Assembly: GCA_028583605.1 (NCBI GenBank)
Contig: CM053331.1
Coordinates: forward strand, 9,904,857 to 9,968,856
DNA length: 64,000 nucleotides
Reading direction: 5' to 3'
From: Dastarcus helophoroides
Lineage: Eukaryota; Arthropoda; Insecta; Coleoptera; Bothrideridae
The notes below the pieces were generated by a model that had not been told where the DNA came from, made no database searches, and saw only the letters and a program-made list of their open reading frames with translations. This document shows positions 1 to 58,920 of this stretch, one piece after another (within the stretch, counting starts at the first letter, position 1; every line of letters begins with the position of its first letter). Both the position numbers and the translations under genes were made by a program.

Positions 1-165
1 TGAAAAAATACAACAGAGGTTGCTGTACCGCGTTTCGATAGCCAAGCTATCATCTTCAGAGAGATACTCATCTCTTGCTCTCTTAGAGCAACCTCTGTTG
101 TGTTTTTTCATTTTTCTTGGTTTTATGGGACAAGTATTGTATTTCAATTTTTAAAGATAACCAAT
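1..165 (-). repeat. Penelope-like element terminal repeat, inverted copy at window edge
   Basis: Positions 87-165 (agcaacctctgttg, then a cttggttt..gggacaag block and tatttcaattt) recur on the plus strand at about 13905-13985, 20345-20415 and 58575-58642. Positions 11-24 are the exact reverse complement of 87-100, so the block is a 14-bp inverted repeat around a loop. The same ends lie next to GIY-YIG endonuclease relics at 13.7-13.9 kb, and a further relic sits at 62.2 kb, which is why I assign them to a Penelope-like retroelement. The element probably continues to the left of the window. Confidence 0.6.
11..100 (-). ncRNA. Hammerhead-type ribozyme motif (type I layout), minus strand
   Basis: Read on the minus strand, CTGAAGA (59-53) fits the hammerhead core CUGANGA. 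It is followed by a 6-bp stem II, GATAGC/GCTATC with a TTG loop, then GAAA (36-33), a very short stem III and a possible NUH site. Stem I is closed distally by the perfect 14-bp pairing of 11-24 with 87-100. Penelope-like elements are known to carry hammerheads with tiny helix III in their terminal repeats, so context and core agree. After GAAA this copy reads CGCGGTAC instead of the CGCGTT seen in the 20.3-kb copy, so cleavage competence is uncertain. Confidence 0.6.
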
Positions 166-319
166 GACAAGTCCGTTCCACCAAAAAACAAAAAAATACA
201 ACCTATGAATTTACAATTTTGAAGTGTTCTCTATAACGCACGCAGTGCCGCCTACCAACCATTAGAAAAAGAAAATATTTTATAATAAAATGGGGGTTTC
301 TTTGGGTATTATTATTGTT

Positions 320-1975
320 ATATCTTATGGGGTCTGTTATCCCTGCAGCACTGAAGCTTTCGCTTAGTGTACCCTCCACGAATATATCATAATAGACCCG
401 TTCTTTTGAAGAATTCCAGAACTTTATTCATGGGTGTCTCCAATATTGCCTTTGGTTCAGTCAGAGCATTCCCAAAGCTGCAATGTCTATCCCCTGCCAG
501 AGTCGGACAATCACATAATATGTGTAAAGGAGTTTTTTCTTCCTCTCCACACATTTTACAAGTAAATTTTTTTATGCCAATTGTTGTAAGATGTTTTATT
601 AGAGCACAGTGTCATGTAAATAGTTCAACTATCCACCCGAGCTAATTTTTGCTCAACTGTAATAGTTTTCCGGTTCTCTTTTCTGATGATCCATCAATGA
701 ACATTTGCGATTGCCTTAGACCATTGACACCCCTCCAGTGAGTGCTGTGCTCTTTTCTTTATTACCTCTTTTGCTGCTCTATAAGCAAGCAGAGAAGGAG
801 TTTTCGATCCTACTAAAGAAAACTCGGCTCCCCTTTTGGTTAGAAAGTCTGCTTTTTCATTTCCTTCAATTCCCCGATGGGCCTCAACCCATCGAAGTAT
901 AACTGTATTGTGCTGTGGTAAGTTACTTAGCTTGTCAACACAATCTTTGACCGTTCTGGAGTTCATTTCATTAGCTGTCAGCGCGTTTAGTGTTGCTTGG
1001 CTGTCGCTATAGATAACAATTCTCTTGTTTTCATAAGACCTCCTAATCATTGCTTCAGCACAGGCTGTTATTGCAGTAATTTTCGCCTGAAATGCGGTTG
1101 CCAAAAATCCCAGGTTTATGCAAAATTCATTTCCTGGTTCTTTGCCGGTGATTTCCGCATCAGTACATATCGTTGTTTTGGATCCATCTGTGAACCAGAC
1201 TGATCGACTCTTTTTTTTTTGGTTTTACTAACTGCACTCCCCTTTCCAGTATTTCTACCTGTTAGGGTTTGTGAAAGTTGGTAATACTTTTTGTTCTCTC
1301 CGATGGCATATTTAGCGTATGGTTCTCACAGATTCGCTTAAATAATTCTGTATGGCATGTTGATCTAGGTGATTCCATTATGTACCCATTTGTTCTTAGC
1401 CTGTAGGCTGTTGAGAGGGCATCCGCCTCCACCACCAGATAAAGTGGGGGCAGATATAGCAGTGCTTTCATGGCTGCAGTGGGCGTTGTTTGCATTGCTC
1501 CTGTTCTTCTTAAGCAAGCTAAACTTTTTACCTTGCTTAGTTTGATAAAACTTTCTTTGTTTCTGGCTTTGTTCCACCAGATCAAAGAACCGTATATTGC
1601 TATGGGTGCTACAACCTTGGAATATAGCCAATGGCCATCGCTGGTCTGAGTCCCCATTGTTTTCCTATCATGCCTTTAGAGGCCCATAGAGACTAAGTAG
1701 CTTTGCCAGTAACATTTTTCCACATGAGCGCCAAAGCTAAGTTTGGCATCTAAGATAAGTCCCAAATATTTAACTTCTTCACTCAGCGGAATTTCTTGTC
1801 CTCCTAAACTAAGTCTCCTTAAATCATTAAGATTCCCTTTTTTAGTAAATGCGACTATTTCGCATGGTTCACTGTTAATCCTTCTGCCAAACACCACCTT
1901 TCTCCAATATTCAGTGCCCGTTGCATTAATGCTGATACGGGCTACCAAATAATCAAGTTTTAATTGGCATATCAT
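320..1975 (-). pseudogene. LINE ORF2 relic: RT C-terminal part, RNase H and zinc-knuckle tail (I/Loa/R1-type)
   Basis: Minus-strand reading, 5' to 3'. 1975-1676 encodes the end of a reverse transcriptase with EEVKYLGLILDAKLSFGAHV, the usual phrase after the palm. 1657-1262 continues through VVAPIAIYGSLIWW and TTPTAAMKALLYLPPL, the thumb/connection of this LINE group. About 1205-800 is an RNase H domain: WFTDGSK (first Asp near 1186), IYSDSQATLNAL, and HRGIEGNEKAD. 645-400 gives the C-terminal HCALIKHL and CKMCGEE...HILCDCP knuckle. The frames are not continuous. An in-frame TGA stands where a Gly is usual just before HCAL, and the 5' part (endonuclease, RT fingers and palm) is missing. The 3' end at about 305-330 has an ATA-rich tail, as in the I group. 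RNase H after RT limits the clade to I, Loa, R1 or Ingi-like; I cannot separate these. Not functional. Confidence 0.85.
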
Positions 1976-2090
1976 TTAAAAAAGCTACCGTTAAGAATCT
2001 TATAACACGTTTTTATAGTTTTTGCTCCAATAGTCTTAAAGATACAAGTCCAAATGTGTAAGACATGGCCATTCCCCCTGATCTTCGAGA

Positions 2091-2690
2091 TTAAACATAC
2101 CTTTTTATAATATTAGTCAATATTGGGTCATAGATTATTGGAAAACTGCAAGTTTTTTCGATATCGTTGTTGAGAAAAAAAATACTATGCAGAAAAATAG
2201 GTGCTTCCATTCCAAGGCTTTTAATCCATATAGTAATATTTTTTAAATAGAGAACTTGATTAAGTCGCAGCATAGAATGGAAATCTTTGCCTTTTACATT
2301 ATTTTATTTAGATGAATATTTTCGGAATTGGTACAGATTCACTAAATTGCACGCAATGCAGTAATTTTGATTAAAATCGAACATTTTAGCGCAAACCGAG
2401 GTAATCACATAAAGTGTGTTAGTCATTAAAAAACTGCGAATGATGCCTTTTACCTGAGGCATCATCAACACAGTTACCAATTCCAAAAATATTACGACTG
2501 TTTGTAGAAAAAAACTGTATTTCAAAATAGATGTTTGTTATTGTTTTTCAATTATATCACAAGAAAATTTGAATGAAATTTCAAAGTTATACATAAGTAA
2601 AAAAAAATGATTTGGTCTATTGACTGTACACTGTAGTAATTGGTACGGAACCCTAAATGTGCGAGCCCGATACGCTCTTGGCTGACTTTT
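2091..2690 (-). repeat. Dispersed insect repeat with agggttccgtacc end, copy I
   Basis: The reverse complement of 2630-2690 reads gtcagccaagagcgtatcgg...agggttccgtaccaa, and the body back to about 2091 aligns in order with the reverse complement of 10150-10650 (shared blocks near ttttccaata, cgatatcg, ggtgcttc/ggcacct, gcgcaaac). The end resembles the cggccaagtgcgagtcgg...agggttccgtacc sequence that is very abundant in Lepidoptera. No protein is encoded. The other end of this copy has been lost next to the LINE at 1975. Confidence 0.6.
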
Positions 2691-2699
2691 TTTTAGGAG

Positions 2700-4790
2700 T
2701 TAGCCTCGATGCTTGTTGAGTGATGGGATAATTTATGTATGCAGTAGTAAAAGCCATTGCTGTTACGATATACATTAGTTCTATAATAATAACAATTTTA
2801 AAATATTTGATCGAAAAAAAAACATTGCGAATAAAAGTGGAATTCGTTTAAATCAACAAGAGTGTTAAATGACCAAACAAATGAATGATAAATACAGAAA
2901 AATAAAAGTATAAATGCAATATTCTGAACATACTTCACTGGCAGGTAATTTAATATTTTGTATTGTTCAAATACTGTACATACGAGAAGCAAATATATTT
3001 GTTTGTTTCTTACCGTCGTATTAACATTAATACTTTAAACTTTATTAATTAAACAATAAACCAACGAAGCTAGTCAAAAACCGATTTTAAGAATTTGTTT
3101 AGTTTTGTAACTACAAGTAGCAAAAATATTTTTTACTTTTCTGACCATCGCGACACATTTCACTGATTTAGTAACAATATTTTGACTTCTTTAAGAATTA
3201 GATCATGAAACTACAACACGATCCAAAAAGTTGTTTTGTTAATCTTTTTAGCTTCGTTTACAACTAGCAATAAGCTCTAGTTTATAGACTAAATCATTTC
3301 AACCATGATGCAGTGATACCGGCATGTCGACGCGCATCTCGTTTTCCAGTGTGACGTAACATGCCACGCAAGTGCCCAATTGTTTGCATTAAATCAGTAC
3401 TTAGTTTTGAGTTCTCAAATGGATTATTTCAGTTAATTTATTTACATTCTTTATTTTAAATAATTCTGATGGTTACATTGTCTTGCAAAGCAGTTTATAA
3501 ACAACTTTTACTGTTATTTATAATCTTATTTATATAGAATGTTTCAATCATAATGGCTTTAATTTAACCTACGTATTGGGAAAGCTGAGTAAAGAAAAAA
3601 ATTTAAAAAAAAAATGTTTATTCGACCTTCTGAAATAGTTCCAAATCAATCTATTCACCACGCAAAGCATGCCGCTACTGACCACGTTAAATGGTTTACG
3701 ACAGCAGATGCTTATTACGTTATCGTTCACTTACCAAGTTGCAATGATAAGATAGGCTGGCCAGGGCAAAACATTGCTAATTAATAAGTTTTATATGTTA
3801 TTAGGCGATATTTGTAAAACTAGAGGATTTACTTTTAAGTAAAAAGCAAAAGCGAAAGGTAGGGATGATAAGTAAAAGTTAGGAGTAAAAGGTTTTATTT
3901 AATTTGTATTTATACTCTTTATCTTTCCTTTGTAAGCAAATCCTTTGAAAAATCAAAGCAACTTCTAATATTCTTTCTTAGGGTTAATATACTGGGCCCG
4001 CGAAGAAGAGAAAAGGTTAATGGGCAAATGCCTTGGGGTCCAGGCTTCATGGGTGTCTTTAGTATCCAACAAAGGGCTAGGATATCATAACTTCTCTGGA
4101 ATTCTCGTCGGGTTTGGTCATCAGATACGGCATTATTCCATATTCACCTAGTAGAACTGGCAGAACTGTGTTTCTTATCCCTTTTGTAACTAGGCACACT
4201 ATATAATTTTTCTATGTATAAAGTTCATAATCTGATCCAGGCCATCTTGAATCATTACTAGTTATGACAAGCTTTGGATTGCGTTTAACTTGAATATTTC
4301 AACTTGTAAGATTTTTATTATTTACATATTCATATCGAAATTCGGCTAGCGTTTCAATATGAACATATGTATACTCAAGATCTTCAATAGCTCTTGGAAA
4401 AGGAAATTTGCCCAACCATCTTTGTTTGGTCACCATTTTCTATCCGTGAAAACCGAATCTATTGATAAGCCTTTTCTACATATACTCCAATACTTTGTAA
4501 AATAGTCCGGATACTATAGGTAGAAGGAATCCCAATTCTTGAGTAGCAAAGATACCCTACGAATTTTTTTATGATCTTCCAGGATATGGTCCACTAACTT
4601 TACAAAATAAACCTCTTCAAAGATAAATAACGTTTTGAAGTCTAATTGACAAAGACATAGTTCTTGGTTTATAATTTTTTATTGCATTTAAATTCACCAC
4701 GTCGGCCATTGCAAACACTCAATTACAACCATAAATTGACATAACTAATAAACAGACAAATGTTGGTTCGCAGTTGGATCGTTGTTTATA
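2700..4790. other. 2.1 kb without a supportable gene
   Basis: A+T-rich sequence with no frame showing a recognisable domain. 3950-4570 has a slightly more complex base composition, and short minus-strand open stretches could be very old coding relics, but no motif is readable. No tRNA, array or clear inverted repeat was seen. Confidence 0.4.
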
Positions 4791-4794
4791 AATA

Positions 4795-4888
4795 AAAGTC
4801 AGCCAAGAGAGAGTTGAGTTCGGACAATTAGGGTTCCGTACCAATTACTACAAAAAACACGAAATAGACCAAATTAAATCATTTTTAC
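4795..4888 (+). repeat. agggttccgtacc repeat, copy II (5' end fragment)
   Basis: gtcagccaagagagagttg...tagggttccgtaccaattac...gaccaaattaaatca matches the starts of copies I and III, then stops at about 4888, where the tRNA-His-bearing repeat begins. Only the first ~95 bases are present. Confidence 0.6.
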
Positions 4889-5683
4889 TTGACGGGTTTA
4901 AGCGTTTTCTTTAAAAGTTGTTCGTTAATTTTTTAAGGAATTTATCTTAGCTCAGTCAAATTGTGCTGAAAAATTATTTACCCTGCAAAAGGTCGAATAA
5001 TGCTGATTTTTTTTATGTTGTTTGGAGTAAAGTAAAGGTGAAAAAAAACCAAGTTTTTAACATTATATTAGAAGCTTTCTGCCTAATTCCCAATCCTCAG
5101 CAAAAGATTATATGTAATTTCGTTCTCTTTTCAGTTTTTTGAGAATAACTTTTTTTAAGCGATGTGGCGTGACAATAGCCATTATCATTTATAAAGAAAT
5201 TGTCTACAATTTGGTATATAAAATAAAGTTTTTCCTGAGTTTAACAGCAAGCGAACTATGCATACTTAATAGTTAAAAGAAAATTCAAAATAATATCTAT
5301 AAGCCACTTATATTATTTGTAAAATAATAATGCAACATTAATACGAGAAGGTTTTGTTACTGACTGTTCAGATATATGTTTTGTTGATAATTACCACTCT
5401 GAGATTTACCTTTTTACCCCTACATGCATTTAAACTATCTAAGGCTGGAAAAGACTTCCTGCACTCTGCTGAAAGACTTAGAAGTAGAAGAGAAGTCTTC
5501 ATATTTCATTATTCTTCTATTATGCCAAAAATATCATCCTCTTCATTATCATTGTTAAACACTCCTGGGACCTTTGTACAGGAGTAAGTATTTTCAAATT
5601 AGAGAAGACTTCAGCCCCAATTTTCTGCAGCTGCAAGATCTGCTGCAGACTCTTTTTATAGATGCCTGAAGTTAACTTGACTG

Positions 5684-7260: not shown

Positions 7261-7700
7261 ATCTACCATTTTATGAAATCACGACATAAGAATGAAAGCG
7301 AATGCAATCGGTCGTTACATATACAAGGTATTTTAGAATTGTTCTTATTTACCATAACATAATTAGTTCTTACCTACTTCAGTAGGTTAGTGATGCGGAA
7401 AACAAATAAGATTCGTTTAAAAAGTCGCCTCCCCGTGACAATGCTTTAGCATTGCCGTGACCAGGATTCGAACCTGGGTTACTACGGCCACAACGTAGGG
7501 TCCTAACCACTAGACGATCACGGCTACGGAGACGATGATTAAATTACTAAGCTGCATTCACGCAAGCCCACATTTGCTCTAGATAACTTACTAGATTACT
7601 ATTATTATAAGTGCGCTATGACTGTATGCAGTCAGAGAATTTGCTCTTAAAGCAAAAAATAAATCGCAAAGTTGCGAATTACCATTTTTATATGAAATTT
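7261..7700 (-). repeat. tRNA-His-bearing dispersed repeat, copy 1 (split by the 2.3-kb insertion)
   Basis: With 4889-4947 on the far side of the insertion, this copy matches 28598-28992 and 33083-33540 along its whole length: gaatttatct/acca, gttcttattta.cataacataatta, gcggaaa, then the tRNA, then gacgat..ttaaat and cacatttg.. blocks. Flanking sequence has diverged while the tRNA has not. Confidence 0.75.
7453..7524 (-). tRNA. tRNA-His (GTG)
   Basis: The 72-nt minus-strand cloverleaf has acceptor pair GCCGTGA/TCACGGC, discriminator A, D arm with AGTGGTTA, anticodon stem CTACG/CGTAG around TTGTGGC (anticodon GTG), and T arm CCAGG TTCGAAT CCTGG. The A box (AGTGGTTAGG) and B box (GGTTCGAATCC) are intact. 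The 3' trailer folds into CAATGC/GCATTG and ends at T5 (7423-7419), a pol III stop. No CCA is encoded, as usual in eukaryotes; G-1 would be added after transcription. Identical to the copies at 28844 and 33276. Confidence 0.95.
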
Positions 7701-13202: not shown

Positions 13203-13625
13203 CAGCGTGTCCCATGCTGTACTTATTGGGCTAGGTTAGGTTAATTGAGAAGGTAGAGAAATGAATTTAAAAAATTTTGAATGGCATCAGTTAATCTTAT
13301 ATTACGCTCTCTTCAAACTTTAGTGGTTGCTGCCATCCTGAAACCTGAAACGCGTCCCCCTTTTTTCGCTGAAACTAAATTTTCACTAAATACAGCCATG
13401 GAAAGCAAGTCACCATTGAAGTGACGTGCTTCCCCTAAAAAAAGAAATAGTTTTATATGCAAGGTGTCCGAAGATGTACTTACAGGCGATATCTCAGTTA
13501 GTTAAAAGGATAGAGAGATTAATCAAAAAAAATTTTAAATGGTATCAATTAGTTCATTTAAATGCATTTTTAAAACTGCAGCAGCTGCTACCGCCCTGAA
13601 GAAACCATCTCCTATCCCTTTTTTC
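13203..13625 (+). repeat. Imperfect ~250-bp direct duplication
   Basis: 13205-13345 (gtgtcccatgctgtactta ... ggtagagaaatgaat ... aaattttgaatggcatca ... gctgccatcctgaa) and 13456-13605 (gtgtccgaagatgtactta ... ggatagagagatt ... aaattttaaatggtatca ... gctaccgccctgaa) match in order. Between them, 13406-13434 can fold as a hairpin with GTCAC/GTGAC arms. The ggtgtccc start resembles mariner-type termini, but no TA-flanked ends were found. Confidence 0.5.
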
Positions 13626-13719: not shown

Positions 13720-13908
13720 ATCATTTAACATAGAATTCTTATTTACTACTTTCAACAGTTTAATATTATTATCTATCCTATGATCTAATTTAAAAGCATG
13801 TCGAGCAACACTTGACTTCTCAGTTCTTGCGTACCTCAAAAGAGCCAAATGCTCCTTCAGTCGGATTTTAAGAGATCGTCTAGTCTGCCCGATGTACCGC
13901 TGGGCCTT
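13720..13908 (-). pseudogene. Penelope-like element GIY-YIG endonuclease fragment
   Basis: The minus strand reads RYIGQTRRSLKIRLKEHL, ALLRYARTEKSSVARHAF and KLDHRIDNNIKLLKVV, ending NSMLNDC and a stop. YIGQT is the second half of the GIY-YIG signature and R..LK.R..EH is the conserved helix after it. This domain ends the RT-GIY-YIG protein of Penelope-like retroelements and nicks target DNA. The GIY half and the whole RT are missing. At 13908 it abuts, head to head, a plus-strand Penelope terminal repeat, an inverted join typical of these elements. A second relic with nearly the same protein sequence lies at 62183. Confidence 0.8.
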
Positions 13909-13985
13909 TAGAGCAACCTCTGTTGTGTTTTTTAATCTTTCTTGGTTTCAGGGGACAAGATTTGTATTTCAATTTTTTAAAAATT
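13905..13985 (+). repeat. Penelope-like terminal repeat, 3' portion
   Basis: It starts at ttagagcaacctctgttgtg and runs through cttggtttcaggggacaaga to tatttcaatttttt. It matches the 20.3-kb and 58.6-kb copies downstream of the ribozyme cleavage position, but it lacks the CTGAAGA-GAAA core itself. Starting just after the expected cleavage site is suggestive of a processed RNA end. Confidence 0.6.
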
Positions 13986-19943: not shown

Positions 19944-20262
19944 TCGTGCATTACCATCCTTGTCTTCTGGGAACTTTTTCCTAGAGAGCAACCGCTTCGC
20001 TAGGTGGCAGTGTTTCAACTGTTGACAGTTCAGCTACCTATGATTCACTATACACGCCTGAATTTGTGTGCGCTACATGAATTTGTAGTCTAGGTTGCAT
20101 TCTACTTGCATAATCGAATTCAGTTTGTGGCTCGGCTCGGTCCATTAACGTAAAGTTAGTTCCCTTAATTTGATATGTGCCATATCCGATTCGTCGAGTA
20201 ATCCGCTGGTGTATGGCCAGCTATTAGGCGTTTTGGTTAAACGAACTGATCCTTGGTTATCT

Positions 20263-20415
20263 TCAAAAATTAAAATGCAAATCTTGTCCCCTGAAACCAA
20301 GAATCTATGACTCTGAAGATGATAGCTTGGCTATCGAAACGCGTTAAAGCAACCTTTGTTGTGTTTTTAAATCTTTCTTGGTTTCAGGGAAAAATATTTG
20401 TATTTTAATTTCAGC
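20263..20415 (+). repeat. Penelope-like terminal repeat with inverted flanks
   Basis: 20281-20302 (cttgtcccctgaaaccaaga) is the reverse complement of the cttggtttcaggg block at 20378-20392, so the ribozyme core sits between inverted copies of the same terminal sequence. tattttaattt at the right end is mirrored by aaattaaaatgcaaa on the left. Confidence 0.6.
20306..20358 (+). ncRNA. Hammerhead-type ribozyme motif
   Basis: CTGAAGA (20313-20319), stem II GATAGC/GCTATC (20321-20326/20330-20335) with loop TTG, GAAA (20336-20339), then ACGCGTT (20339-20345), which gives the A15.1-U16.1 and C15.2-G16.2 pairs and a GUU cleavage triplet. ACGCGU is self-complementary, so two molecules could share a longer helix III, as known for the mini-hammerheads of Penelope elements. 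Stem I next to the core is poor in this copy. Confidence 0.65.
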
Positions 20416-20419
20416 TATT

Positions 20420-20940
20420 AAGCATACATCTCACAATATCAAGCATCATATTACTGCTTTTTTTTATCATAATGGTTTTTATGACTTTAAAATAAAAGTT
20501 ACTTAAATATGCTTTTTCTGTGACGACGCCTTTAACATAAAACATGTGACGTATCAAATTATTCAAATAATAATGCTGAATTTGAAAATGAGGAAATTCA
20601 ATATGACGTCTATAAGAAAGAACAAAGGAGCCATAATTTTGTCCAAATTTATTTAACACACAAAATAATTAGCTTTGCAACTGCAAAGATTTTTAAAACG
20701 TAAGCAAAAATGATCAAAGGTTTTTGTTTAATCGGACTAAAAATAAAGAAGTTACAGCAGATTTTAAAAAATGACGTTTTTTTTTCTTAATAAAATCTAA
20801 ACATGTCAGCATTCCACTATTAATGAAATGTTTATGAACACAAAATTTTGCACTACTTTGCTTATATAATGGACTTTCTAGCTCCACTAACAAAGAAGTT
20901 AACCATGTTATCCCATGTGCAGTAGAACTCACTGTATATT
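20420..20940. other. No gene seen
   Basis: Frames at 20411-20659 and 20714-20932 (minus) are short and motif-free. Composition is as in the flanking A+T-rich DNA. Confidence 0.35.
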
Positions 20941-28597: not shown

Positions 28598-28992
28598 TTG
28601 ACAGATTTTAGTGGTTTCTCCAAAAGTTGGTTATTAATTTTTAAATGGAATTTATCTACCACTTTATAAAATCACTCCATAAAAATGAAAACGAATGCAA
28701 TCAGTCATTCCTAGACAAGATATTTTAGAATTGTTCTTATTTATCATAACATAATTAGTTCCTATCTAATTCAGTGGGTTAATGATGCGGAAAGTGAAAA
28801 ATATTCTTTTAAAAAATCGCCTCCCCGTGACAATGCTCCGCATTGCCGTGACCAGGATTCGAACCTGGGTTACTACGGCCACAACGTAGGGTCCTAACCA
28901 CTAGACGATCACGGCTATGAAGACGATAATTAAATCACTACGCTGCACGCAAGTAAGTTCACATTTGGCCTAGATAACCTACAAAATTACTA
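28598..28992 (-). repeat. tRNA-His-bearing repeat, copy 2
   Basis: Collinear with copies 1 and 3 from cttgacag.ttttag and ggaatttatctaccac through the tRNA to ttactatta. It is cut at about 28992 by a sequence starting tagagatgcacaaac, a hAT-like start. Confidence 0.75.
28844..28915 (-). tRNA. tRNA-His (GTG)
   Basis: All 72 bases are identical to 7453-7524: same GCCGTGA acceptor, GTG anticodon, and A and B boxes. The trailer keeps the CAATGC/GCATTG stem with a changed loop (28831-28845), then T6 on the transcript strand (28816-28811). Confidence 0.95.
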
Positions 28993-33082: not shown

Positions 33083-33540
33083 CCAAAGGTGGTTCGTTAT
33101 TTTTTTTTAATGAATTTATCTACCACTTTAAAAAACCACTACCACTACATAAGAGTATAAACTGTTCTTATTTATCATAACATAATTAATTCTTACTTAA
33201 TTCAGTGGGTTAGTGATGCGGAAAGCGAAAACGATTCGTTTAAAAAATTGCCTCCCCGTGACAATGCTTCAGCACTGCCGTGACCAGGATTCGAACCTGG
33301 GTTACTACGGCCACAACGTAGGGTCCTAACCACTAGACGATCACGGCTGCAGAGACGATGTTTAAATCACTGCGCTGCATTCAAGAAAGCTCACATTTGC
33401 TTTAAATAACCTACTAAATTACTATTAATATAAGTGCGCTGTGACTATGCAACCAGGTGCTCGTAGGGCGGAAAAAAATCGCAAAGTTGGTATAATTACC
33501 AATTCAACATTTCAAAGAAATTAAAATTTACAGAAATATT
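33083..33540 (-). repeat. tRNA-His-bearing repeat, copy 3
   Basis: Collinear with copies 1 and 2 (ggttcgtta, gaatttatctaccac, gttcttatttatcataaca, tRNA, gacgatgtttaaatcac, ataagtgcgct, aatcgcaaagtt). Like copy 1, it runs straight into a degenerate array. Confidence 0.75.
33276..33347 (-). tRNA. tRNA-His (GTG)
   Basis: All 72 bases are identical to the other two copies. The trailer stem reads CAGTGC/GCATTG on the transcript strand, so one A-U pair has become a G-U wobble and pairing is kept. T6 (33247-33242) follows. Confidence 0.95.
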
Positions 33541-41229: not shown

Positions 41230-41357
41230 GTTCAGGTGTGGGGTTACAGCGGGGTAACGGGTCTTAGTGTTTAAATAAGTCAGACCACCCTCGCTGAACA
41301 GTTTTTCCCGTTTGTGAGGTTACGTTTCCGTGGTCGCGCCAACGAATTACCGACAAG

Positions 41358-44300
41358 ATGAGTGAAGAACAAAAGGAATCGACCCATATTAACTTCTCCG
41401 TGGAAGATATTGTACAAACTACGGTACGAGCTTTGATGCTCCATGAAGAAGCTCGCCGTCAGCCATCTCCTATGCCGTCAACTTCTCGACAACCTCTGCA
41501 ATACAAAAATAGTGAAATAGCCGCTCTGCTACCCGAATTCAACGGATTTGTGGACGACGTGAAAGGCTGGCTCGACAGAATCGATGCGGTCCAAAGTACG
41601 TATGCCGTACCAGACGAACTAATAAAGTTAATTTCAGTGGGTAAACTACAAGGGGAAGCAAAGAAATGGTATCAGTCAAAAGTTGAGTTCATATCTATGC
41701 CATGGACAGAATTTAAGTACCAAATTAAGGCTATGTTCCGAAGAAGAATAAATAAGGTCGAAGCTGTCAGGCAGTTCGAGAAAAGAAGTTGGCAACGAAA
41801 CGAAGATTTCACGAAATATTACGCAGACAAGGTCCAATTGGGATACAAAGCGGAGTTACCAGAAGAAGACATTTTAGAGTATCTAATCGATGGAATTGAC
41901 AATGTGATGTTGCAGAACTTCGCGAGGATGAATAATCCTAATGCATTGAGTGATATCCTAGATGTCATGAAGGATGTTAAAAATGAAGGGAGGCCTACCC
42001 CAAAGACCGATGTGCCGACTCCCACCAGAAGGCCCCCACAACAAGAAAATAAAAGGGAATTCCGATGCTACAATTGTAATGGCACTGGACACTTAGCCAA
42101 TAAATGCACGAAACCTAAGAGAAACCCAGGGTCATGCTTCAAATGTGGATCAAGCGACCATCAGATACGAAACTGTACTAAGAACAATGGTCGAGATGAG
42201 AAGAAGGTCAATGTAGTGGACGCCTCTAAGAAACCAGAAGTAATGCCAGAGCTAAACCAAACAACAGAACGAGAAGTAAATGTAGCCAAAATAACTGTCA
42301 GTTCAATAGAAAGCGATGGAACTCAGTGCAAGTATGTACTTGACTCTTTAGTAGATACAGGTAGCAAAATCAGTTTTATTAAAAGTAAATATGTTCATGA
42401 ATATAACTTCAATATGCCCATTTGTGATGATGACAAATTTTCTGGTGTTAACAATTCCAAACTTCACATATTGGGGATTTTTTCAACAACAATACTTATT
42501 AATGACAAAAAAGAAATTAAAGTCAAACTTTATGTGGTCCCGAATGAGACAATGAGTTATGGATGTGTCTTAGGTACCGATGTAATTGTTCCATGCTCTT
42601 TCGAATTTAGAGACAGTGTAAATCTAGAAAGTAATTTTATGTCTGAAATATTACATGTTAATTTCGAAAATATCAATCCCTGTGTAACAGATAGCCTAAA
42701 TATTAATGAACGTTTAGATCATGTGACTTGCAACCATCTAAAATCTATGTTTACTGAACTTTATGAAAACAACTACTCCAACAATTATGATAATAGCTAC
42801 GAAATGACAATTCAATTGAAGCACGATCAACCCATTTTCTTTCGACCAAGGCGTTTATCGTTTCATGAAAAAGAACAACTACAAAATATACTGGATGATT
42901 TGTTAAGCAAGGATATTATTAGAGCAAGCAGCTCACCGTATGCAAGCAAAATCGTATTAATCAAAAAAAAGAATGGTGAATTGCGACTGTGTATAGATTA
43001 TCGAGAAATTAACAAAATTACAATTCGTGACAACTTTCCGACTCCATTAATCGACGATAATTTAGATCTGTTGAAAAATAAAAAGTATTTTAGTACATTA
43101 GATTTAAAAAATGGGTTCCACCATATTAAAGTTGCGGAACCTAGTGTAAAATACACCTCTTTTATAACTCCTTTAGGCCAATTTGAATATATTAGAATGC
43201 CGTTTGGCCTAACTAATGCTCCAAGGGTATTTCAACGGTATTTGTACAACATTTTTTCGGATCTTTTAAAATCACACAAAGTCATTCTATACATGGACGA
43301 CATTCTAGTCGCCACAGAAACCCTAGAAGAACATTTTGATATTTTGGAAAACATTTTCCGTATTGCGGCCGAGCGAAGCTTGAAGTTCCGATTAGATAAA
43401 TGCTTTTTCTTGTATTACGAAATCACTTACCTTGGTTACCTAATAAACTTTGATGGCATTAAGCCTAATCCAGCCAATATTGAATCAGTAAAGAATTATC
43501 CTATACCTACCTGTTCAAAAGAAGTTCAAAGATTTTTAGGATTAGCTAGTTATTTTCGTAGATTTATCTCGTCATTTTCACTTAAAGCTAAGCCTCTCTA
43601 TGATTTAATTAAAAAGGATGCACAAATTAAATTCGGGGAAGAAGAACTAATGTCATTTGAAACCCTTAAAGATTCTCTTGTGAATGCCCCTTTGTTGGCA
43701 ATATATTCGCCTATTTTAGAAACCGAAATACATTGCGACGCTTGCGCAAAAGGATTTGGAGCTATCCTGCTGCAAAAGCAAAAAGATGGTAAGTTTAAAC
43801 CTGTCCGCTATCTGAGTAAACGAACTACTGATGGTGAAGCAAAATTACATAGCTATGAACTAGAAATGTTAGCAGTCGTTTATGCTCTTGAAAAATTTCA
43901 TACGTATGTACACGGATTAAAGTTTAAAATCGTCACCGACTGCAATGCTATTAAAATGGCTTTAAATAAAAAAGATATTAATCCGCGTATTACCAGATGG
44001 GCCCTCATCTTAGAAAATTACGATTATACAATTGAACATCGCCCAAATCATCGAATGGCCCACGTAGATGCCCTTAGCCGGTGTAATGGCATCATGATTC
44101 TCGAAGAAAATACATTTAAACAAAATTTATCGATTGCACAAAATTTGGATAGCACTATTAAAGAATTAAAATCAGAATTGGAAACAAAAAATAGCAAACA
44201 TTTTGAACTTAGACATGGTCTTGTATACAGAAAGAGAAAAAATAATCTGTTATTTTATGTGCCGAAATTAATGGAAAAAAATATTTTGATCATGTGTCAT

Positions 44301-45320
44301 GATAATCTTGGTCATGTCGGTGGTGATAAAACTGCTGAATATCTTAGTAGATCTTATTGGTTTCCGGATTTCAGGCAAAAAATAAAAGATCACATAAAAA
44401 ATTGCATAAAATGTATTACGTTTTCTCCCCCTACAGGTAAACCCGAAGGAAATTTACATAATATCGATAAAGGTAACAAACCATTCGCGACTATTCATAT
44501 AGACCATTATGGTCCTCTGGAAAAAACTTCCGGTGGTAAAAGATACATATTCGAAATAATAGACGGATTTACCAAATTTGTTACTTTATTTGCGGTCAAG
44601 TCAACAAAAACTTGTTAAGTCATTAACTCTTTAAAGACATATTTCCGGTTCTATAGTATTCCAAAGCGCATAGTCTCAGATCGTGGTTCATGTTTTAAGT
44701 CAGGAGACTTCCAAAATTTCATTAATGAATATAATATAATCCATACTTTGATCGCCACCAATACCCCAGAAGCAAACGGTCAAATCAAGAGAATAAACCG
44801 AGATTTAACACCGATGTTGTCAAAACTAAGTGAATTATCCGCGAAATGGGATAAAGTAATTCCTGATGTCGAATTCGCAATCAATAATTCCTTTTGTCGA
44901 TCTATAGCGACTTCTCCATCAAAACTTCTATTCGGAGTCAATCAACGCGATAAGAATGACGCGTTACGAGCATCTCTGGAAATTGATGAGGAAAGGGAAA
45001 ATTTTGAGGAGGTGCGACATGAAGCTCGAAAAGCGAATGCAAAGGTCCAAGAATATAACAAAAAATATTACGATAAGAAGCATAAACTTCCTCATAAGTA
45101 TCAAGTTGATGATTATGTCATGATTAAAAATGTTGATGTTACTACTGGAATCAATAAGAAACTGATTCCAAGATATCGTGGACCTTATCAGGTTGTAAAA
45201 TGTCTTGAAAATGATAGATACGTGGTTAGAGATATTGATGGCTTCCAGGTCACCCAAATACCTTTTGAAGGGGTTTGCAGCCCTCACAATATGAAATTAT
45301 GGCTATCTGCTGAAATGTAG
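41358..45320 (+). pseudogene. gag-pol: gag-pol polyprotein, one frame, one internal stop
   Basis: ATG at 41358. Gag fills about residues 1-230, then two CCHC knuckles (CYNCNGTGHLANKC at 237, CFKCGSSDHQIRNC at 260). Protease SLVDTGSKISFI lies at about 330; RT has LRLCIDYREINK at 541 and the catalytic YMDD at 645; RNase H (IHCDACAKGFGA) at 791. The integrase zinc site (H...H...C..C) begins at about 982. Integrase Asp 1 is at 44502 (HIDHYGP). TAA at 44616-44618 interrupts between Asp 1 and Asp 2 (VSDRG, 44679). The frame then continues without shift to TAG at 45318-45320. At the position of the catalytic Glu (QVER in the family) this copy has Lys (QIKR, codon 44787). So two lesions sit in the integrase core, while gag, PR, RT and RNase H look intact. 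Such a copy might make reverse-transcribable RNA but not a working integrase. Confidence 0.93.
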
Positions 45321-49064: not shown

Positions 49065-49099
49065 ATTTTGTCAGACGAGTCAATAAGAATCTCAAATTG

Positions 49100-50750: not shown

Positions 50751-50754
50751 TTTG

Positions 50755-52977: not shown

Positions 52978-53299
52978 AAAAAACCTAGCTTGTTTATGAG
53001 TTTTTCCTGATTTTTCGAAAACTATTGAACAGGTCAAATATGTAGTACACCTAAAAACTCAATTAAATGACCTTTCAAATGAGGTATCGCTTAACCCCTT
53101 TTCCATTTAAAATTTTAGGAACTGACTCTTCATCTCAAGGGTTTATGTAATTTAATTGAAAATTACATGAAAAGATGTCTCCCTTAAAAATAAAATTGAC
53201 ATGTTTTTGCCTAGTTTCATATTTTATAAATGCGGTGGTAGGTTTTCAAATGACACAAAGGATAATCATTATTCATGAAAGAAATACTTTGGTCTAGAT

Positions 53300-53962
53300 C
53301 AGAGGTCGGCAACCTTTTTTGGACGGCGGGCCATTTTCAAAATAAAATTTTTTATGCGGGCCGCATTTTCAAATGTAACTTAAATTGTTCTTTTTTATCA
53401 TATACGAGTATAAATATTGTTAAAAATGAATACAGAAAAAATTTATTTTTTATCGACATGCTATAATAGCAATTATGTCAGGGAACAAAAATTTTACAAT
53501 TCTTAAGAGGGGAAAAAAAGAAAATACAATTCCAATTACATATGTATAAATATGTAAATATAAAATATATAATGTATTAAGGAAAATAGTTTATCTTTCA
53601 TTTTATTCGTTCATTAAAGTACAATGCGCCTTTTGTTCTTGAATATTGTTTGATAATTCATTTAAGTCCGGTTGTGTTTGGGATATTGAGATAATCAACA
53701 AGTTTTGTAATTTTCATCCGTTAACCTCGTTCTATATTTTGATTTTATTAAATTCATGGGGAACGGGGATTAAACTTGCGCAGTAAAATAGGTTTCCCAC
53801 TATGCTTCTGTTAGCGCGAATTTTTGTTATCGGCCACATTTCGACACGCTCACGCTCTAAATTTGTTGATTTTTCCTAAAATTATATTAGTACTTTGGCG
53901 GGCTGCGCAAAAAGTTGCGAAGGGCCGCATGCGGCCCGCGGGTCGCAGGTTGCCGACTCCTG
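53300..53962. mobile_element. hAT MITE, 663 bp, with 8-bp target duplication
   Basis: It starts CAGAGGTCGGCAACC and ends with the complement of CAGGAGTCGGCAACC. GTCTAGAT stands on both sides (53292-53299, 53963-53970), an exact 8-bp duplication as in hAT transposition. The subterminal regions are G+C-rich and inverted (gcgggccgc against gcggcccgc). No transposase. The exact duplication points to a fairly recent insertion. Confidence 0.9.
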
Positions 53963-53974
53963 GTCTAGATGAAG

Positions 53975-55490
53975 GAAAATAATCAATTTTACAATCTGGA
54001 GTCAATTTAACATGAAAAAAATTTTGAGATAACTTTCGAAAGAATCTAAACCTAAAAGGTTTACCAAATATATGAAATTTTAATTTAACTGTAGTGTTGA
54101 GCTTCGTAACAGTTCTTCTGTTGTTAAATTCATAGGAACAAAAGTCAATACTCCTAAATTTTACGCTTAAACAAAAACAATCGGAATACATAATAATCCT
54201 AAATGTTTCTCCTCTAATGGAGAATCCCCGTACAAAGGCTATCAGTACACACGCGATATTGGTAAAAACAGAATTGTAATTTTTTACCATTCCCTTTCGA
54301 CCGTGTTAGTATGCTTGTCTGAGCCGCATTTGTAACTTTCATTACATAACAACGGGTATTTACGTTGCGACATGTGGAGCTTTATACAAAATAAAATTTT
54401 ATAATAGTAATAAATCTGCTGTAAAAAGGAAGGTTCTGCACGCTTCGGGCTAAATTTGTACTTTGAATGACAATAATTCCATGATTTGCGGAAATATCAA
54501 CTCGGGCATTGTATATCTGTTTCTCTCCATTTTCATAATATACTATCTGATACGTCTGCAGGACAAAATTCATTAAAGCTACAGATTGAAAAAAAAATGG
54601 GTCTCAAGCTACAAAGGTTATTAACTTTGGATACAATGATAAAAAAAATTCTAGAATATTCCAGGAGTTTTGTATTGACAAGCAGGCTATGCTTTCATAT
54701 GTAAGCTAAAAATTTAATTTCGAGCAACTTTTCTCAACAATTTTGCCCGCAGCGTTAAGTTTTCGGGCGCTTTCTCTTTATTGCTTTAAAATTTGTATTT
54801 TCTTCATCTCGCGTGGTTTTAAAACGTGCAAAAAAAATTATGGAGAATGACTTTTTTTCGAAAATTGAAATCTTTTGTTCATTTATAGTAAAGAAACTTG
54901 AACTAGATACATCCAGTATAAGTACTCCCTCATCAAGAAATCCCCAAAACTATTAAACTTGCAAGTTTTTTATATGAAGTAAGCATGCGCTAATAAAGGA
55001 TTTCTTGAAATTCGACCGCTAAGGGGGTGAAAATGTGTATCAAATTTGAACCAGACTTCGGCTTACTCTCAATAAAGTAAACAACTTGTTGTATTGTGCT
55101 GTCTATATATAGTGATGATTTATTGGTTAACCGATTGCCCGGGGAAAGGGTCACCATTAAATTTACAATTAACAATAAACGAAACACTTAAATACAGTAA
55201 TATGTAAATAATATCTTAGACGAACGGTAATAGAAACCCACAACGATAAAACTCTTAACGCGGGCAAGCTGACAAATGGTTGTCCACACGAATTTATCCA
55301 AGTTTTTCTATTTTCTAAGGAAACGGACCGAAAGTGCCCAATGCAGTTTTTTATTTTGCATATTTCAGGATTTTTTTTCTACACTGGTATGATAAATTTG
55401 TTTCTGTTCAGTTAATACAAAAGCAGTCAAGTTAGATAATTAAGCCCTAATTTGAAATAAGGGTATGTTAAGTCTACATATTTTGTTTTA
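53975..55490. other. 1.5 kb without a supportable gene
   Basis: Open frames 53850-54290 (minus) and 54486-54704 show no motif, and the first overlaps the hAT MITE. 55130-55150 has ttgcccggggaaaggg in otherwise A+T-rich DNA. Confidence 0.35.
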
Positions 55491-55494
55491 TATA

Positions 55495-56656
55495 CAGTAT
55501 GTTCATTAAGAAACGTTCCTCGGTTTTAGGAAAACTATTGAAGATTTTTTGATTTTTTCTTTTTAATTGAAAGAACGTTAAAATGCTAACAGCGCAACTA
55601 CTTATAACATGGTCCAATCCCCATTGCTTTCCAGATTAGCCTATCACCCTTTGAGCATACTTCCTACCAGCTTTTTAGCATATCCTAGGAGTAGTAGGCT
55701 CCATGTCTCTCTGATTTTTCGTGAAAGCTATTTGAAGATGAAAACACGTGTTCCTGCAAGTTTCCTCATTGCAGTGCTCCAAAAAATTTTCATTGGATTT
55801 GCATCAAGAGACTGTGAAAACCAGTTTAAAGTTAAATGCCAGTTTCTACTCTCCATGAGGTACAGAGGCGACTCCAATGTTTTGGATCATTGTCCTCCCC
55901 TAAAATCCAGTCTTCGCTTTTAACACTAAACATCTTCTGAACAAGCTTTAGAAAACCACGTTTATAAATCAAGACGATTTTCTGAGCAGTAAGTTCTGCA
56001 TAAAGAGCTTTAAGCCCCTAAAACCGTGCTCTGAGTAACATCCCCAAACATGGAGTTTTGCTGGGTGTTTGATGGTTCACTGAAGCAATGGCTCACCAGC
56101 ATACCTTATGAAAGCCCATGGCCAGAATGATACTTTGTCAGAAAAAATTACATTGGACCAATCTCAGTCGAGATTCTCGACAGCCCAGATCTTGCATTTT
56201 TTCCTGTAGGTCTTCGAAAACAACGGGTTTTTACCTCGTGCTTCGATATTGTATGCTTTTTTCAGCCAAATGGTGTTTATGCTGACGTCAACTCCTCTCT
56301 TAGCTAGCTTGGCTTTGGTTTCAGGTAACTGTAGAGTAGGATTGCGTCTAAACAGCTGTAAGATGACTTTATCCTGCAATTTTATTGTCATTTCCGATTT
56401 GCCTCTACCGGGAAGATCTTCGTTGGCTTTATAGGATTCAACCCACCTCTTCACGAATGTCTTTGACTTTTTTAAATATTTAGCTGCCGCACTGTAAGAT
56501 ATGCGTGGATCTTTTGGTTGACAGTTCCAAAGATAGTAAAACAATTTAGTATCCGCGACGTGGCAACCGAATGCACTTTTTCATCAACAAGTCTATAAAA
56601 GCCAAATCATGAACAGTTTTTAAAAAATCGAGGAACGTTTCTTGTTGAACCGACTG
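55495..56656 (-). mobile_element. Tc1-like DNA transposon, 1162 bp, inactive
   Basis: TIRs: CAGTATGTTCATTAAGAAAC at 55495, with aacgttcctcg further in, and the matching complement ending at 56656 (cgaggaacgtttcttgttga, then accgactg). TA target duplication at 55493-55494 and 56657-56658. The transposase relic fills the interior on the minus strand. Size and layout are those of a full Tc1-like element. Confidence 0.88.
55608..56584 (-). pseudogene. Tc1-like transposase, broken
   Basis: Minus strand. 56544-56164 is the DNA-binding half: YSAAAKYLKKSKTFVKRWVE (first HTH), GRGKSEMTIKLQDKVILQLF, and a second HTH ending KCIWAVENLD-like KCKIWAVENLD. A stop follows. Then come the catalytic half pieces SNVIFSDKVSF (first Asp), HVWGCYSEHGFRGLK, LTAQKIVLIYKRG, WILGEDNDPKHWSRLC (second Asp, EDNDPKH signature) and, after more stops, SLLMQIQ*KFFGAL, where the third acidic residue should be, and a tail with AKSMPKR-like sequence. 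EDNDPKH and the spacing put it in the DD34E Tc1 group. At least five stops or frameshifts in the catalytic half. Confidence 0.88.
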
Positions 56657-56659
56657 TAC

Positions 56660-57087
56660 GTAGATGTATTCATATTTTCCCTGTCTATTAATCCTTAACA
56701 CCGCAATTGTTTGAAATTTTTTATGAAAACAAATGCATATAAAATATTTTATAATGCATATTTTGCAAGTATTTTAGGGCATATTGCATGCATATTTTTT
56801 ACCTTTTTTGCTGCATATAATCCCAGCTCTAGTAATGAGTAATGTGTAATGTGTGTAATGTGTAGCGACTGCAGTGACAAAGTAGCAAATTGTTATGTAG
56901 CAACTCAACACTAGTGATCAATGCATATTTTATCTTTTTACGAAGTCACTTATTTTTTCTATTTTTTTCATCATTTAAAGCTAAACATTTGAGATCTTGA
57001 GGTGAAAACTTCTTTAGACGCGTTAAACAATTTTTGATAGGGAGAAAATTTATTATTTCACGTCACCATCACGCTAATTCCCATTAC
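56660..57087. other. No gene seen
   Basis: Short A+T-rich gap between the Tc1-like element and the hAT pair. 56830-56860 has a small gtaatgtgtaatgtgtgtaatgtgt repeat. Confidence 0.4.
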
Positions 57088-57095
57088 TACAATAC

Positions 57096-58444
57096 CAGTG
57101 GCGGCTGGTCTTATAGAGCGCAAGAGCGCGCGCACCTCGTGAAATGAGTGATTAATTGTTTTCTGTTTAATGTAAATAGCAAGGATTTATCACATTTTTA
57201 AGTACTAAAAATAATGATCTCTTAATTAATTAGTACTTGTGCGTTTGTATGTTTTCTTCCATTGTGAGGAAATTTAAATAAGTTGGTGCGCTCAGAACTA
57301 AGCACTTAGCGTGCCTGCTGTACGATTCCACTCAACGGCATCCTCGCGTTACGTAGAAACAATAATCTACGGAGCGCTCATTAAAGTTAGCGCAGTACGC
57401 CGCTCCCCCACGGAATGTTGTCGGATGATGAGTACGAGACAGAGTTTGAAGTGAAATATTTATGGTTTATGTATTAAGATTTCTGTTACAACTGTTGTCT
57501 TAATTTTGTTTCGAAATGAAGGATAGATTTTCATATCGTCAACCAATTATATTTCGATTATCTAATTATTAACATAAAGATAACTCATATGAGTTACCAA
57601 TTTTATTACGTATAATACATCTGCAATCAATCTGGCAGCAGCATATCTTGTTACATCTGTCTGCGCTATCTGTTATTGTTGTGATTGGCTGTATCGTATG
57701 ATTTATATATTAAAACAAATTTTAAAATGAGTGACACGGACTGAACACTTTGAAGGTTTAAAACTCTAAATGTTCAATCATTTAAATTATAATGAAAGTT
57801 ACGAGAATGTTTTGTGTATTACTATTATGCATTACTGCTTAACGAGGAAAAAAAAGTAATTAACTCATAAATGCTAAATGCCTACGTGTCGGCTGATCTG
57901 ATTGCGATTGCTAATTGTTCCGCTTACAGGCCTAACTGCTAATAGTACCGCTATTTACAAAAAGGTAACGGCACCCATTCTAGGGCGTAATAATTAATTT
58001 GTTGATCTGGTATTTCATTCTAAATTATAGAAAAAATAGTTCGTTGAATAAACACCCACCACTAATTATTATACATTGTCAGTATGCAAGAAAATTTGAA
58101 GTGTATCTTTGTCAGTGTCAGTATTCTGTTTTAGGTTTTAGAAAATTTATTTGTGTTTTTAAAATGAATAGCATTTTTATTTTAAAAAGCGATTTTGGTA
58201 AGCTTCCACTGAAAGAAAAAGTGAAAGCAAAAGAACTAGGTAGGCGTTTGTCAGTGTTAAAATTGGAATAAAAATGTGAAAAATAAATAAAAAAATAAAA
58301 CACTATTAAATACCGCGCCTTACAAAAAGCGTTTGTTTGTCCTAAAGTTAATACCTTGCTACGGTATTGAAGTCACCTAAACTTTAACTATTAATATTTT
58401 TTACATCTGCGCCCTCCCTGTTAAAAAGTCACCAGCCGTCACTG
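57096..58444 (+). mobile_element. hAT element copy A
   Basis: 1349 bp with CAGTGGCGGCTGGT termini. Shares agagcgcaagagcgcgcgc, gtaaataagttggtgcgc-type and atgagtacgagacagagtttg blocks with copy B in the same order, and has about 300 bp more. Encodes only a short transposase relic near 58164. Confidence 0.75.
58164..58271 (+). pseudogene. hAT transposase N-terminal relic
   Basis: MNSIFILKSDFGKLPLKEKV, then KAKELGRRLSVLKLE and a stop. The pattern (LxxxFxxLPLxxKxxxKxLGRPxPxL) resembles the start of TTF-zinc-finger hAT transposases of insects. Only 36 residues remain, so the call rests mainly on its position inside a hAT copy. Confidence 0.45.
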
Positions 58445-58920
58445 TTTTCTAATATAGGCAATTTTCCCTTACGGAAAGATTGGAAGTAATAATAATCAAA
58501 TTAAAACATAATCTAAACAACTAAAGTATATCCCAGTATCTCTCTGAAGATGATAGTTTAGCTGTTGAAATGCGTTAGAACAACCTTTGTTTTTTTTTAA
58601 TCTTTCTTGGTTTCAGGGGACAAGATTTGTATTTCAATTTTAGTATACACATTTTGGCATATTCAATTTAAATTCAATAGAGTAATCGACTAGTAGTTCA
58701 AAGAGTGTTTTTTGGTAACGCAGTACTGATATATCTGATTACGTATATGGCAATATGATCCATTTTCCCCTATCTTTGGTAGCTTAGTGCCCCTAAAGAA
58801 GTTTTTACTTTAAAAATCTAATTTGTAATACTTAATGCAAATATGAAATATTGCTGCCATTTGCTAAGTAGTACGATTGAACATGGGTTTGTATTGTACC
58901 GTCAACGGTTGCACTACAAC
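58445..58920 (+). other. Cargo between the two hAT copies
   Basis: Holds the Penelope terminal repeat at about 58535-58645. The rest (58650-58920) is A+T-rich with no gene. Confidence 0.5.
58536..58592 (+). ncRNA. Hammerhead-type ribozyme motif, stem II kept by wobble pairs
   Basis: CTGAAGA (58544-58550), then GATAGT TTA GCTGTT, GAAA, TGCGTT, and agaacaacc. Against the 20.3-kb copy, stem II has three changes that all leave G-U pairs, so the helix still forms. Helix III keeps U-G and A-U pairs and the GUU triplet. Upstream CTCT pairs with AGA(A) after the cleavage position. Downstream cttggtttcaggggacaaga is the common Penelope end. Confidence 0.6.

What the first reader, a model, noticed from the sequence alone, without database searches (positions are those of the whole stretch)
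1..58645. Hammerhead-ribozyme cores repeated in Penelope terminal sequences
CTGAAGA - stem II - GAAA - short helix III occurs at 33-59 (minus), 20313-20345 and 58544-58567, always next to the same agcaacctctgttg / cttggtttcagggg sequence, which also adjoins a GIY-YIG relic at 13.7-13.9 kb. The 58.5-kb copy has three stem II substitutions relative to the 20.3-kb copy and all give G-U pairs, so pairing was kept. ACGCGU in helix III is self-complementary, as in ribozymes that work as dimers. Established: Penelope-like elements can carry such ribozymes. Inference: these copies are of that kind.
Basis: partly seen in the sequence, partly recalled or inferred. Interest (0 to 1): 0.75.

Follow-up and report, generated by a model that had tools for sequence, protein, structure and literature searches.

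The report
Decayed Penelope retroelement hammerhead ribozyme copies
The three spots are worn-out copies of a very common Penelope-type jumping-gene end that carries a small hammerhead-type self-cutting RNA motif, a known combination, seen here with a clear layout in which the motif sits where the RNA is predicted to start.

Summary
The motifs lie in terminal repeats (pLTRs) of a Penelope-like element (PLE, family F1). The 539-Mb genome holds 15,019 matches to CTGAAGA-N10-26-GAAACGCG, 7 to the reversed pattern. Intact copies form a minimal type I hammerhead: stem I CUCU/AGAG, CUGAAGA, an extra U, stem II, GAAA, self-complementary ACGCGU, cut site GUU^AGAG. Rfam misses it even where intact. Best evidence: a second PLE family, F2 (1,444 pattern matches), whose stems have other letters that still pair and whose core is U3-A8, a swap known in natural hammerheads (PMC3088659). 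The window copies are decayed: none passes a strict descriptor. The "three G-U changes" argument is weak; single stem changes look near neutral. In the tandem copy L143 the motif lies about 31 nt after a TATA box and holds the only AUG before the RT/GIY-YIG ORF, out of frame. Cleavage in vivo is unproven: a 5'-end footprint test was positive locally but not genome-wide. New member of a known kind; family well supported, window copies as working ribozymes not.

The parts
26..59 (-). Copy A of the hammerhead motif (CTGAAGA at 53-59, GAAA at 33-36, minus strand; helix III reads ACGCGG). Stem I next to the core is lost (T2.1 faces C1.1).
   Evidence: sequence; alignment; fails strict descriptor
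1..82 (-). Left arm of insertion A (inverted pLTR carrying the motif, plus junction bases); continues outside the window to about position -30 (L135).
   Evidence: by eye
83..185 (+). Right arm of insertion A: pLTR fragment whose homology starts TTAGAGC, 2 nt before the predicted cut site, and ends with the PLE tail.
   Evidence: by eye; tail match at 165-180 minus
197..205 (.). TACAACCTA, possible 9-bp target-site duplication of insertion A (other copy in L135); separated from the element end by about 11 A-rich bases.
   Evidence: by eye
13720..13909 (-). GIY-YIG relic of the PLE ORF (YIGQTRRSLKIRLKEH...), 5'-truncated, with no hammerhead motif at its side.
   Evidence: translation; 84-89% identity to other genomic copies listed; no Pfam hit at E 0.001 for the 64-aa piece
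13908..13976 (+). pLTR fragment joined head-to-head to the relic; homology starts TTAGAGC, 2 nt before the predicted cut site, so the ribozyme half is missing.
   Evidence: break position -2
20218..20229 (.). Left target-site duplication, CAGCTATTAGGC
   Evidence: by eye
20231..20303 (-). Inverted pLTR arm with the PLE tail
20313..20345 (+). Copy B of the hammerhead motif, closest to the family consensus: core, stem II and ACGCGU intact; stem I keeps 1 bp next to the core (5' strand replaced at the insertion junction). Predicted cut after 20345.
   Evidence: fails strict descriptor
20346..20411 (+). pLTR 3' part, short (no tail) end
20412..20423 (.). Right target-site duplication, CAGCTATTAAGC (11 of 12 as on the left)
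   Evidence: by eye
58535..58640 (+). Short PLE insertion C: starts AGTATCTCT at the usual 5' end and stops at the short 3' end
58544..58576 (+). Copy C of the hammerhead motif: three G-U pairs in stem II, AUGCGU in helix III, 3-bp stem I. Predicted cut after 58576.
   Evidence: fails strict descriptor

Best explanation
The three motifs are decayed copies of a minimal type I hammerhead that belongs to the pLTR of a Penelope-like retroelement (F1). In the tandem copy L143 the order is: end of the RT/GIY-YIG ORF, TATA box, predicted transcription start (AGTTTCTC), hammerhead, rest of pLTR, tail, ATG of the next ORF. Shown by sequence: the core, the three helices in intact copies, the pLTR anatomy, an inverted-pair insertion with a target-site duplication, and the place of the motif. 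Inferred: the RNA starts 9 nt before the core; two motif copies in one tandem transcript can pair through ACGCGU and cut after GUU; cutting would remove the cap and the only upstream AUG and leave an RNA beginning AGAGCAACC; short genomic copies are pLTR-started or 5'-truncated insertions, often made when both target strands prime reverse transcription. The confidence given is for the shown part; for cutting in this genome I would put it near 0.55.
For: 15,019 pattern matches against 7 for the reversed pattern. Anatomy in L132, L142 and L143; RVT_1 and GIY-YIG in the plus copy of L132; named relatives among beetles, a lacewing and mosquitoes. Two recurrent 3' ends, with and without tail, by eye in the 70 copies, as published for PLEs (PMC3846280, PMC11167929). 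An 11-bp repeat brackets the L132 inverted pair. F2: stems I, II and III all differ from F1 and pair, U3-A8 core, same extra U and AUG; 1,444 pattern matches against 0 for the control. U3-A8 is reported in natural hammerheads. A strict descriptor, written after F1, F2 and F3 had been seen, gives 0 hits in 3.84 Mb of Markov-1 sequence (one strand) and finds F1, F2 and F3. Stem II pairing in F1 exceeds all 1,000 column shuffles (0.925 against mean 0.906). 97 of 197 distinct 5' ends fall at -44 to -38, next to the TATA-placed start.
Against: No Rfam hammerhead hit at E 10 in the window copies, in intact F1 or in F2. One extra base disturbs the usual 10.1-11.1 contact. Stem I shows no covariation within F1 (0.824 paired; 973 of 1,000 shuffles reach it), and the stem II excess rests mainly on one T-A/C-G column. 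Genome-wide junction counts show no excess at the cut site: 24 at -4 to +1 and 24 at -1 to +4 (overlapping), against 42 at -25 to -21, 39 at -15 to -11 and 31 at +7 to +11. The lowest-energy two-strand fold of F1 leaves ACGCGU unpaired. PMC11167929 reports that hammerhead mutants of a lizard PLE still insert in vitro and that no RNA-seq ends were found at its cut site. The 811-aa copy L142 carries A at G12 in its direct motif.
Confidence: 0.85

Rival explanations
1. The motif is hammerhead-derived but does not cut in this genome; the same letters are kept because they serve as start region, AUG and protein-binding hairpin of the PLE RNA. (This rival disputes only the cutting step of the best explanation.)
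For: No excess of insertion 5' ends at the cut site in genome-wide junction counts; extra U next to stem II; insertion by PAc does not need the hammerhead in vitro; single stem changes near neutral.
Against: F2 keeps all three helices and a pair at positions 3-8 with different letters, which a start site or AUG would not require. Local sample: 26 of 197 distinct 5' ends at -2 to +4, 7.7 expected.
Confidence: 0.3
2. The repeats are retrozymes: small non-autonomous tandem hammerhead elements moved as circular RNA.
For: Tandem arrays with motif-bearing units of 170 bp (L136) and 271 bp (L137), inside the published 150-450 bp range (PMC7229834, passages); two more runs by eye (L053, L056-L060).
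Against: The units contain inverted pLTR, motif and pLTR, i.e. tandem copies of a PLE insertion; in L136 the AGAGC side of stem I is gone. Only two such runs are seen by eye among the 100 places listed.
Confidence: 0.08
3. Chance hairpin in a repeat, no relation to hammerheads.
For: No Rfam hammerhead hit.
Against: 0 descriptor hits in 3.84 Mb of simulated sequence but hits in F1, F2 and F3; PLEs are known to carry such motifs.
Confidence: 0.03

Closest known systems
Hammerhead in Poseidon of Anolis carolinensis (PAc), PMC11167929 (main-text section read in two parts; passages)
   Same: PLE pLTR; AUG at the start of stem II with C3 and G8 before it; [quoted passage not shown] tail between two RT start sites; both DNA strands cut and extended, which fits head-to-head pairs here.
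   Different: In PAc the hammerhead AUG starts the ORF. Here it opens a 57-codon frame, out of frame with the ORF and overlapping its start. Helix III is palindromic here. Activity untested here.
Minimal dimeric PLE hammerheads (Cervera and de la Pena 2014; Lunse et al. 2017; papers not held; known to me from citing passages and from recall)
   Same: Type I, very short or missing helix III, pLTR location, tandem copies, dimer action proposed.
   Different: Letters could not be compared with their consensus, because neither paper is held.
Penelope families of Adineta vaga, PMC3846280 (passages)
   Same: pLTR with TATA box and initiator, inverted pLTR, optional tail, TSD, palindromic head-to-head junctions.
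   Different: The word hammerhead does not occur in its main text. Here one inverted pair has arms of at least 2,071 bp that are 100% complementary.
Core variants of natural hammerheads, PMC3088659 (section 8; passages)
   Same: U3-A8 in place of C3-G8; a mismatched first pair of stem II tolerated in one case.
   Different: F2 also has the extra U and a palindromic AUACGUAU helix III.

Membership tests
Type I hammerhead ribozyme | Core C3 U4 G5 A6 N7 G8 A9 / G12 A13 A14 | tested here: met
   F1: each core position has its expected letter in 128-146 of 146 copies (copies were picked for at most 7 of 43 mismatches to the consensus). F2 has U3-A8 instead, a known natural variant.
Type I hammerhead ribozyme | Three helices around the core, 5' end in stem I | tested here: met
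   Intact F1, F2 and F3 copies pass a strict descriptor. The three window copies do not.
Type I hammerhead ribozyme | A15.1-U16.1 pair and H17 at the cut site | tested here: met
   A15.1-U16.1 in 118 of 125 distinct F1 rows; H17 is T, C or A in 146 of 146 copies.
Type I hammerhead ribozyme | Stem II starts directly after A9 with a 10.1-11.1 pair | tested here: not met
   One extra base (T 136, C 9, G 1 of 146) lies between A9 and stem II. [quoted passage not shown]
Type I hammerhead ribozyme | Reaches the Rfam gathering score | tested here: not met
   No hammerhead match even at E 10 in the window copies, intact F1 or F2. F3: 32.6 bits with RF00163, cut-off 34; 34 bits with RF02275, cut-off 52.
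Type I hammerhead ribozyme | Self-cleavage | not testable with these tools
   Needs a bench assay.
Penelope-like element | ORF with RT and GIY-YIG | tested here: met
   RVT_1 E 7.8e-11 and GIY-YIG E 4.1e-05 in the plus copy of L132; open frames of 811 aa for L142-L144.
Penelope-like element | pLTRs in tandem, inverted pLTR, optional tail, TSD | tested here: met
   L143 tandem; inverted pair and 11-bp repeat; two 3' ends.
Retrozyme | Tandem 150-450-bp units with hammerhead, mobilised as circular RNA | tested here: inconclusive
   Arrays of 170 and 271 bp seen; circular RNA not testable.

The most novel reading that the evidence does not exclude
The hammerhead is a switch between translating and copying the PLE RNA. 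It sits at the RNA start and holds the only AUG upstream of the ORF, out of frame, so uncut capped RNA would be poorly translated. Cutting would remove cap and upstream frame together, while the copying start lies downstream of the second motif, so cutting there would split template from copying start. The extra U, which makes the AUG in both F1 and F2, would then be selected. Short genomic copies starting at or just after AGAGC would be insertions of cut RNA.
Probability: 0.15. Interest if true: 0.65.

Novelty: new member of a known kind. Interest (0 to 1): 0.35.

Why it matters
The role of PLE hammerheads is open in the papers read: PMC7761336 (passages) calls their in vivo activity and role "still a mystery". 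This genome gives 16,463 pattern matches in two families, with tandem copies that fix the motif against the promoter, the AUG and the copying start. That makes concrete tests possible, including counting insertion ends at the cut site; the count made here is mixed and is no proof of cleavage. For annotation it shows that Rfam's hammerhead models miss this abundant motif.

Tried and rejected
(1) Footprint of cleavage in insertion 5' ends. Local sample: 420 BLAST hits, 253 unique copies after filtering, 10 dropped as internal deletions, 243 kept, 197 after merging look-alikes. 26 fall at -2 to +4, against 7.7 expected from positions -37 to -3 and +5 to +24 (Poisson P 2e-7). The exact bounds -2 to +4 were set after seeing the histogram, and microhomology or palindromic centres such as GGTTGCAACC can favour +3 and +4. 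Genome-wide counts of one junction class (inverted start end, 0-4 bases, then a fixed 15-mer): 91 places start-to-start; 42 at -25 to -21; 39 at -15 to -11; 24 at -4 to +1; 24 at -1 to +4 (overlaps the last); 31 at +7 to +11. No excess at the cut site; the 15-mers may decay at different rates and some places belong to arrays. I therefore do not claim in vivo cleavage.

(2) Covariation inside F1 as proof of selection: one stem II column carries the double change; the other single transitions look near neutral.

(3) Motif AUG as ORF start, as in PAc: rejected for F1; the ORF starts at ATGGCTTCC after the tail, out of frame with it.

(4) Folding two F1 strands together: the lowest-energy dimer fuses stems I and II and leaves ACGCGU unpaired, so it does not support the dimer reading. 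The single strand of intact F1 folds stems I and II.

(5) TATA distance: the script measured to an earlier TATATAA (829); the 31 nt is counted by eye (1288 to 1319).

(6) Retrozyme reading: see rivals. (8) Host species not identified; named PLE relatives point to an insect. (9) How many F2 copies keep C3-G8 is unknown, because the F2 pattern fixed U3 and A8.
Full report
What was checked. The window is part of a 539-Mb genome of 50 contigs with no name given.

Abundance. CTGAAGA-N10-26-GAAACGCG has 7,596 forward and 7,423 reverse matches in the genome, against 4 and 3 for the pattern read backwards. A 38-base piece of the downstream pLTR has 4,800 exact matches, 0 in the control. The window therefore holds three members of a large repeat.

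Structure. The copies listed (30 loci and the window) mostly share TCTCT before the core and AGAGC after CGCGTT. This gives stem I CUCU/AGAG, core CUGAAGA, one extra base (T in 136 of 146 copies, C in 9, G in 1), stem II GAYAGC/GCURUC with a 3-base loop, GAAA, and the self-complementary ACGCGU, with cut site GUU^AGAG (copies picked without gaps and with at most 7 of 43 mismatches). Pairing in 125 distinct rows is 89-97% per pair in stem II and 72-91% in stem I. Stem II pairing exceeds all 1,000 column shuffles (0.925 against a mean of 0.906); stem I does not (0.824, reached by 973 of 1,000). Stem II covaries mainly at one column (T-A 57, C-G 38, T-G 19, C-A 7). Outside that column single transitions keep pairing in 29 of 48 cases in stem II and 40 of 66 in stem I, so the "all G-U" argument for the 58.5-kb copy is weak.

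Rfam. No hammerhead match at the gathering score in the window or at E 10 in any of the three copies, in an intact F1 copy or in F2. The one genome match with RF00163 at E 0.001 was L001 (32.6 bits, cut-off 34), with 73 of 91,202 first-look candidates scored. L001 also scores 34 bits with RF02275 Hammerhead_HH9, cut-off 52. It is a third type, F3: CTGACGA, stem GATCT/AGATC, GAAA, helix ACCGGT, then C.

The element. A GIY-YIG fragment from 13.7-13.9 kb finds 150 genomic matches, with 150 of 3,408 candidates scored. L132 holds two copies head to head, with arms of at least 2,071 bp that are 100% complementary, 458 bp apart; the arms reach the edge of the stretch fetched. The plus copy carries RVT_1 and GIY-YIG. 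ATCTTAACCCT stands on both sides of the pair, which argues for one insertion rather than an assembly fold. L143 shows the tandem order: ORF end, TATATAA, AGTTTCTC 31 nt on, hammerhead, pLTR, tail, ATGGCTTCC of the next ORF. The genome search reports open frames of 811 aa for L142-L144. The best-scoring relatives have no source name; named ones include beetles, a lacewing and mosquitoes (120 of 2,424 listed), which points to an insect host. By eye in the 70 copies, 3' ends recur in two forms, with and without a tail of about 33 nt, as in published PLEs.

Second family. A search with 106 residues of the ORF N-terminus found a PLE family 43-48% identical there. Six regions around three of its copies were fetched. 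The four that contain a pLTR (L145, L146, L148, L150) hold TTGAAAATGCCAGTTCTGCTGGCGAAATACGTATC at the matching place; L147 and L149, two 5' sides, show none. The pattern has 1,444 matches and 0 in the reversed control. Stem I (GCGC/GCGU), stem II (GCCAG/CUGGC) and helix III (AUACGUAU) all differ from F1 and all pair; C3-G8 is replaced by U3-A8. PMC3088659 reports that C3 and G8 covary to U3 and A8 in several natural hammerheads and that such ribozymes are active in vitro (section 8). Of 27 F2 copies read (4, 23 chosen by the pattern), 11 have GUGCGC and 8 GUACGC on the 5' side of stem I, both pairing; the other 8 differ. A strict descriptor, written after these families had been seen, had 0 hits in 3.84 Mb of Markov-1 sequence made from the window and finds F1, F2 and F3. 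I regard the F1-F2 comparison as the strongest evidence that the motif is a hammerhead by descent and structure.

The window copies. None passes the strict descriptor. Copy A (26-59, minus) has ACGCGG and no stem I at the core; copy B (20313-20345) lost the 5' side of stem I at the insertion junction; copy C (58544-58576) has three G-U pairs, AUGCGU and a 3-bp stem I. Copy B is a complete short insertion with CAGCTATTAGGC/CAGCTATTAAGC on its sides. The 13.9-kb fragment lacks the motif; its homology starts 2 nt before the cut site.

How it probably works. RNA would start at AGTWTCTC: 97 of 197 distinct insertion 5' ends lie at -44 to -38, and the TATA box fits. The motif then lies at the RNA's 5' end and, in tandem transcripts, again near the copying start. 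Dimer pairing through ACGCGU is inferred from its self-complementarity and from published dimeric PLE motifs; predicted two-strand folds do not show it. In L143 the motif's AUG opens a 57-codon frame that is out of frame with the ORF and overlaps its start, and no other AUG lies between. Head-to-head pairs fit the published finding that a PLE protein cuts and extends both strands.

Limits. Two footprint tests disagree (detailed under tried and rejected), and work on PAc found insertion independent of the hammerhead and no RNA ends at the cut site. Cleavage here is unproven. The papers that define PLE hammerheads were not held, so a letter-level comparison with their consensus was not done. Paper searches behind statements on the literature. 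PMC6155905, PMC7229834, PMC7761336, PMC10085705 and PMC3846280 were seen as passages only.

Noticed in passing
7453-7524, 28844-28915, 33276-33347 (all minus): Three tRNA-His (GTG) genes with the same letters in the alignments shown.
   Followed up: no
41298-45320 (+): Two adjacent long frames (1,106 and 233 aa) that read by eye like the gag-pol of a Ty3/gypsy retrotransposon.
   Followed up: no
694-1224 (minus): 176-aa open frame that reads by eye like the RNase H domain of a LINE.
   Followed up: no
L132 (C2:25945300-25949900); L133; L134: PLE insertions as head-to-head pairs with palindromic junctions. In one search a number of hits come as minus/plus pairs from a few hundred bases to a few kb apart.
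   Followed up: partly
L136 (C1:1593700-1594800), L137 (C1:2044200-2045500), L053, L056-L060: Tandem arrays of motif-bearing units: 170 bp by spacing (L136), 271 bp by tandem repeat finder (L137), and two more runs by eye.
   Followed up: partly
L001 (1507, minus) and, by eye, L073: A third hammerhead type with canonical core CTGACGA and helix III ACCGGT in another repeat of the same genome; copy number not obtained.
   Followed up: partly
13224-13620: Two similar stretches (gagagattaatcaaaaaaa... text) beside the GIY-YIG relic, probably another repeat, by eye.
   Followed up: no
L142 direct pLTR: A copy with an 811-aa open frame whose own direct motif has A at G12, so an ORF-bearing copy need not have an intact motif.
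   Followed up: no
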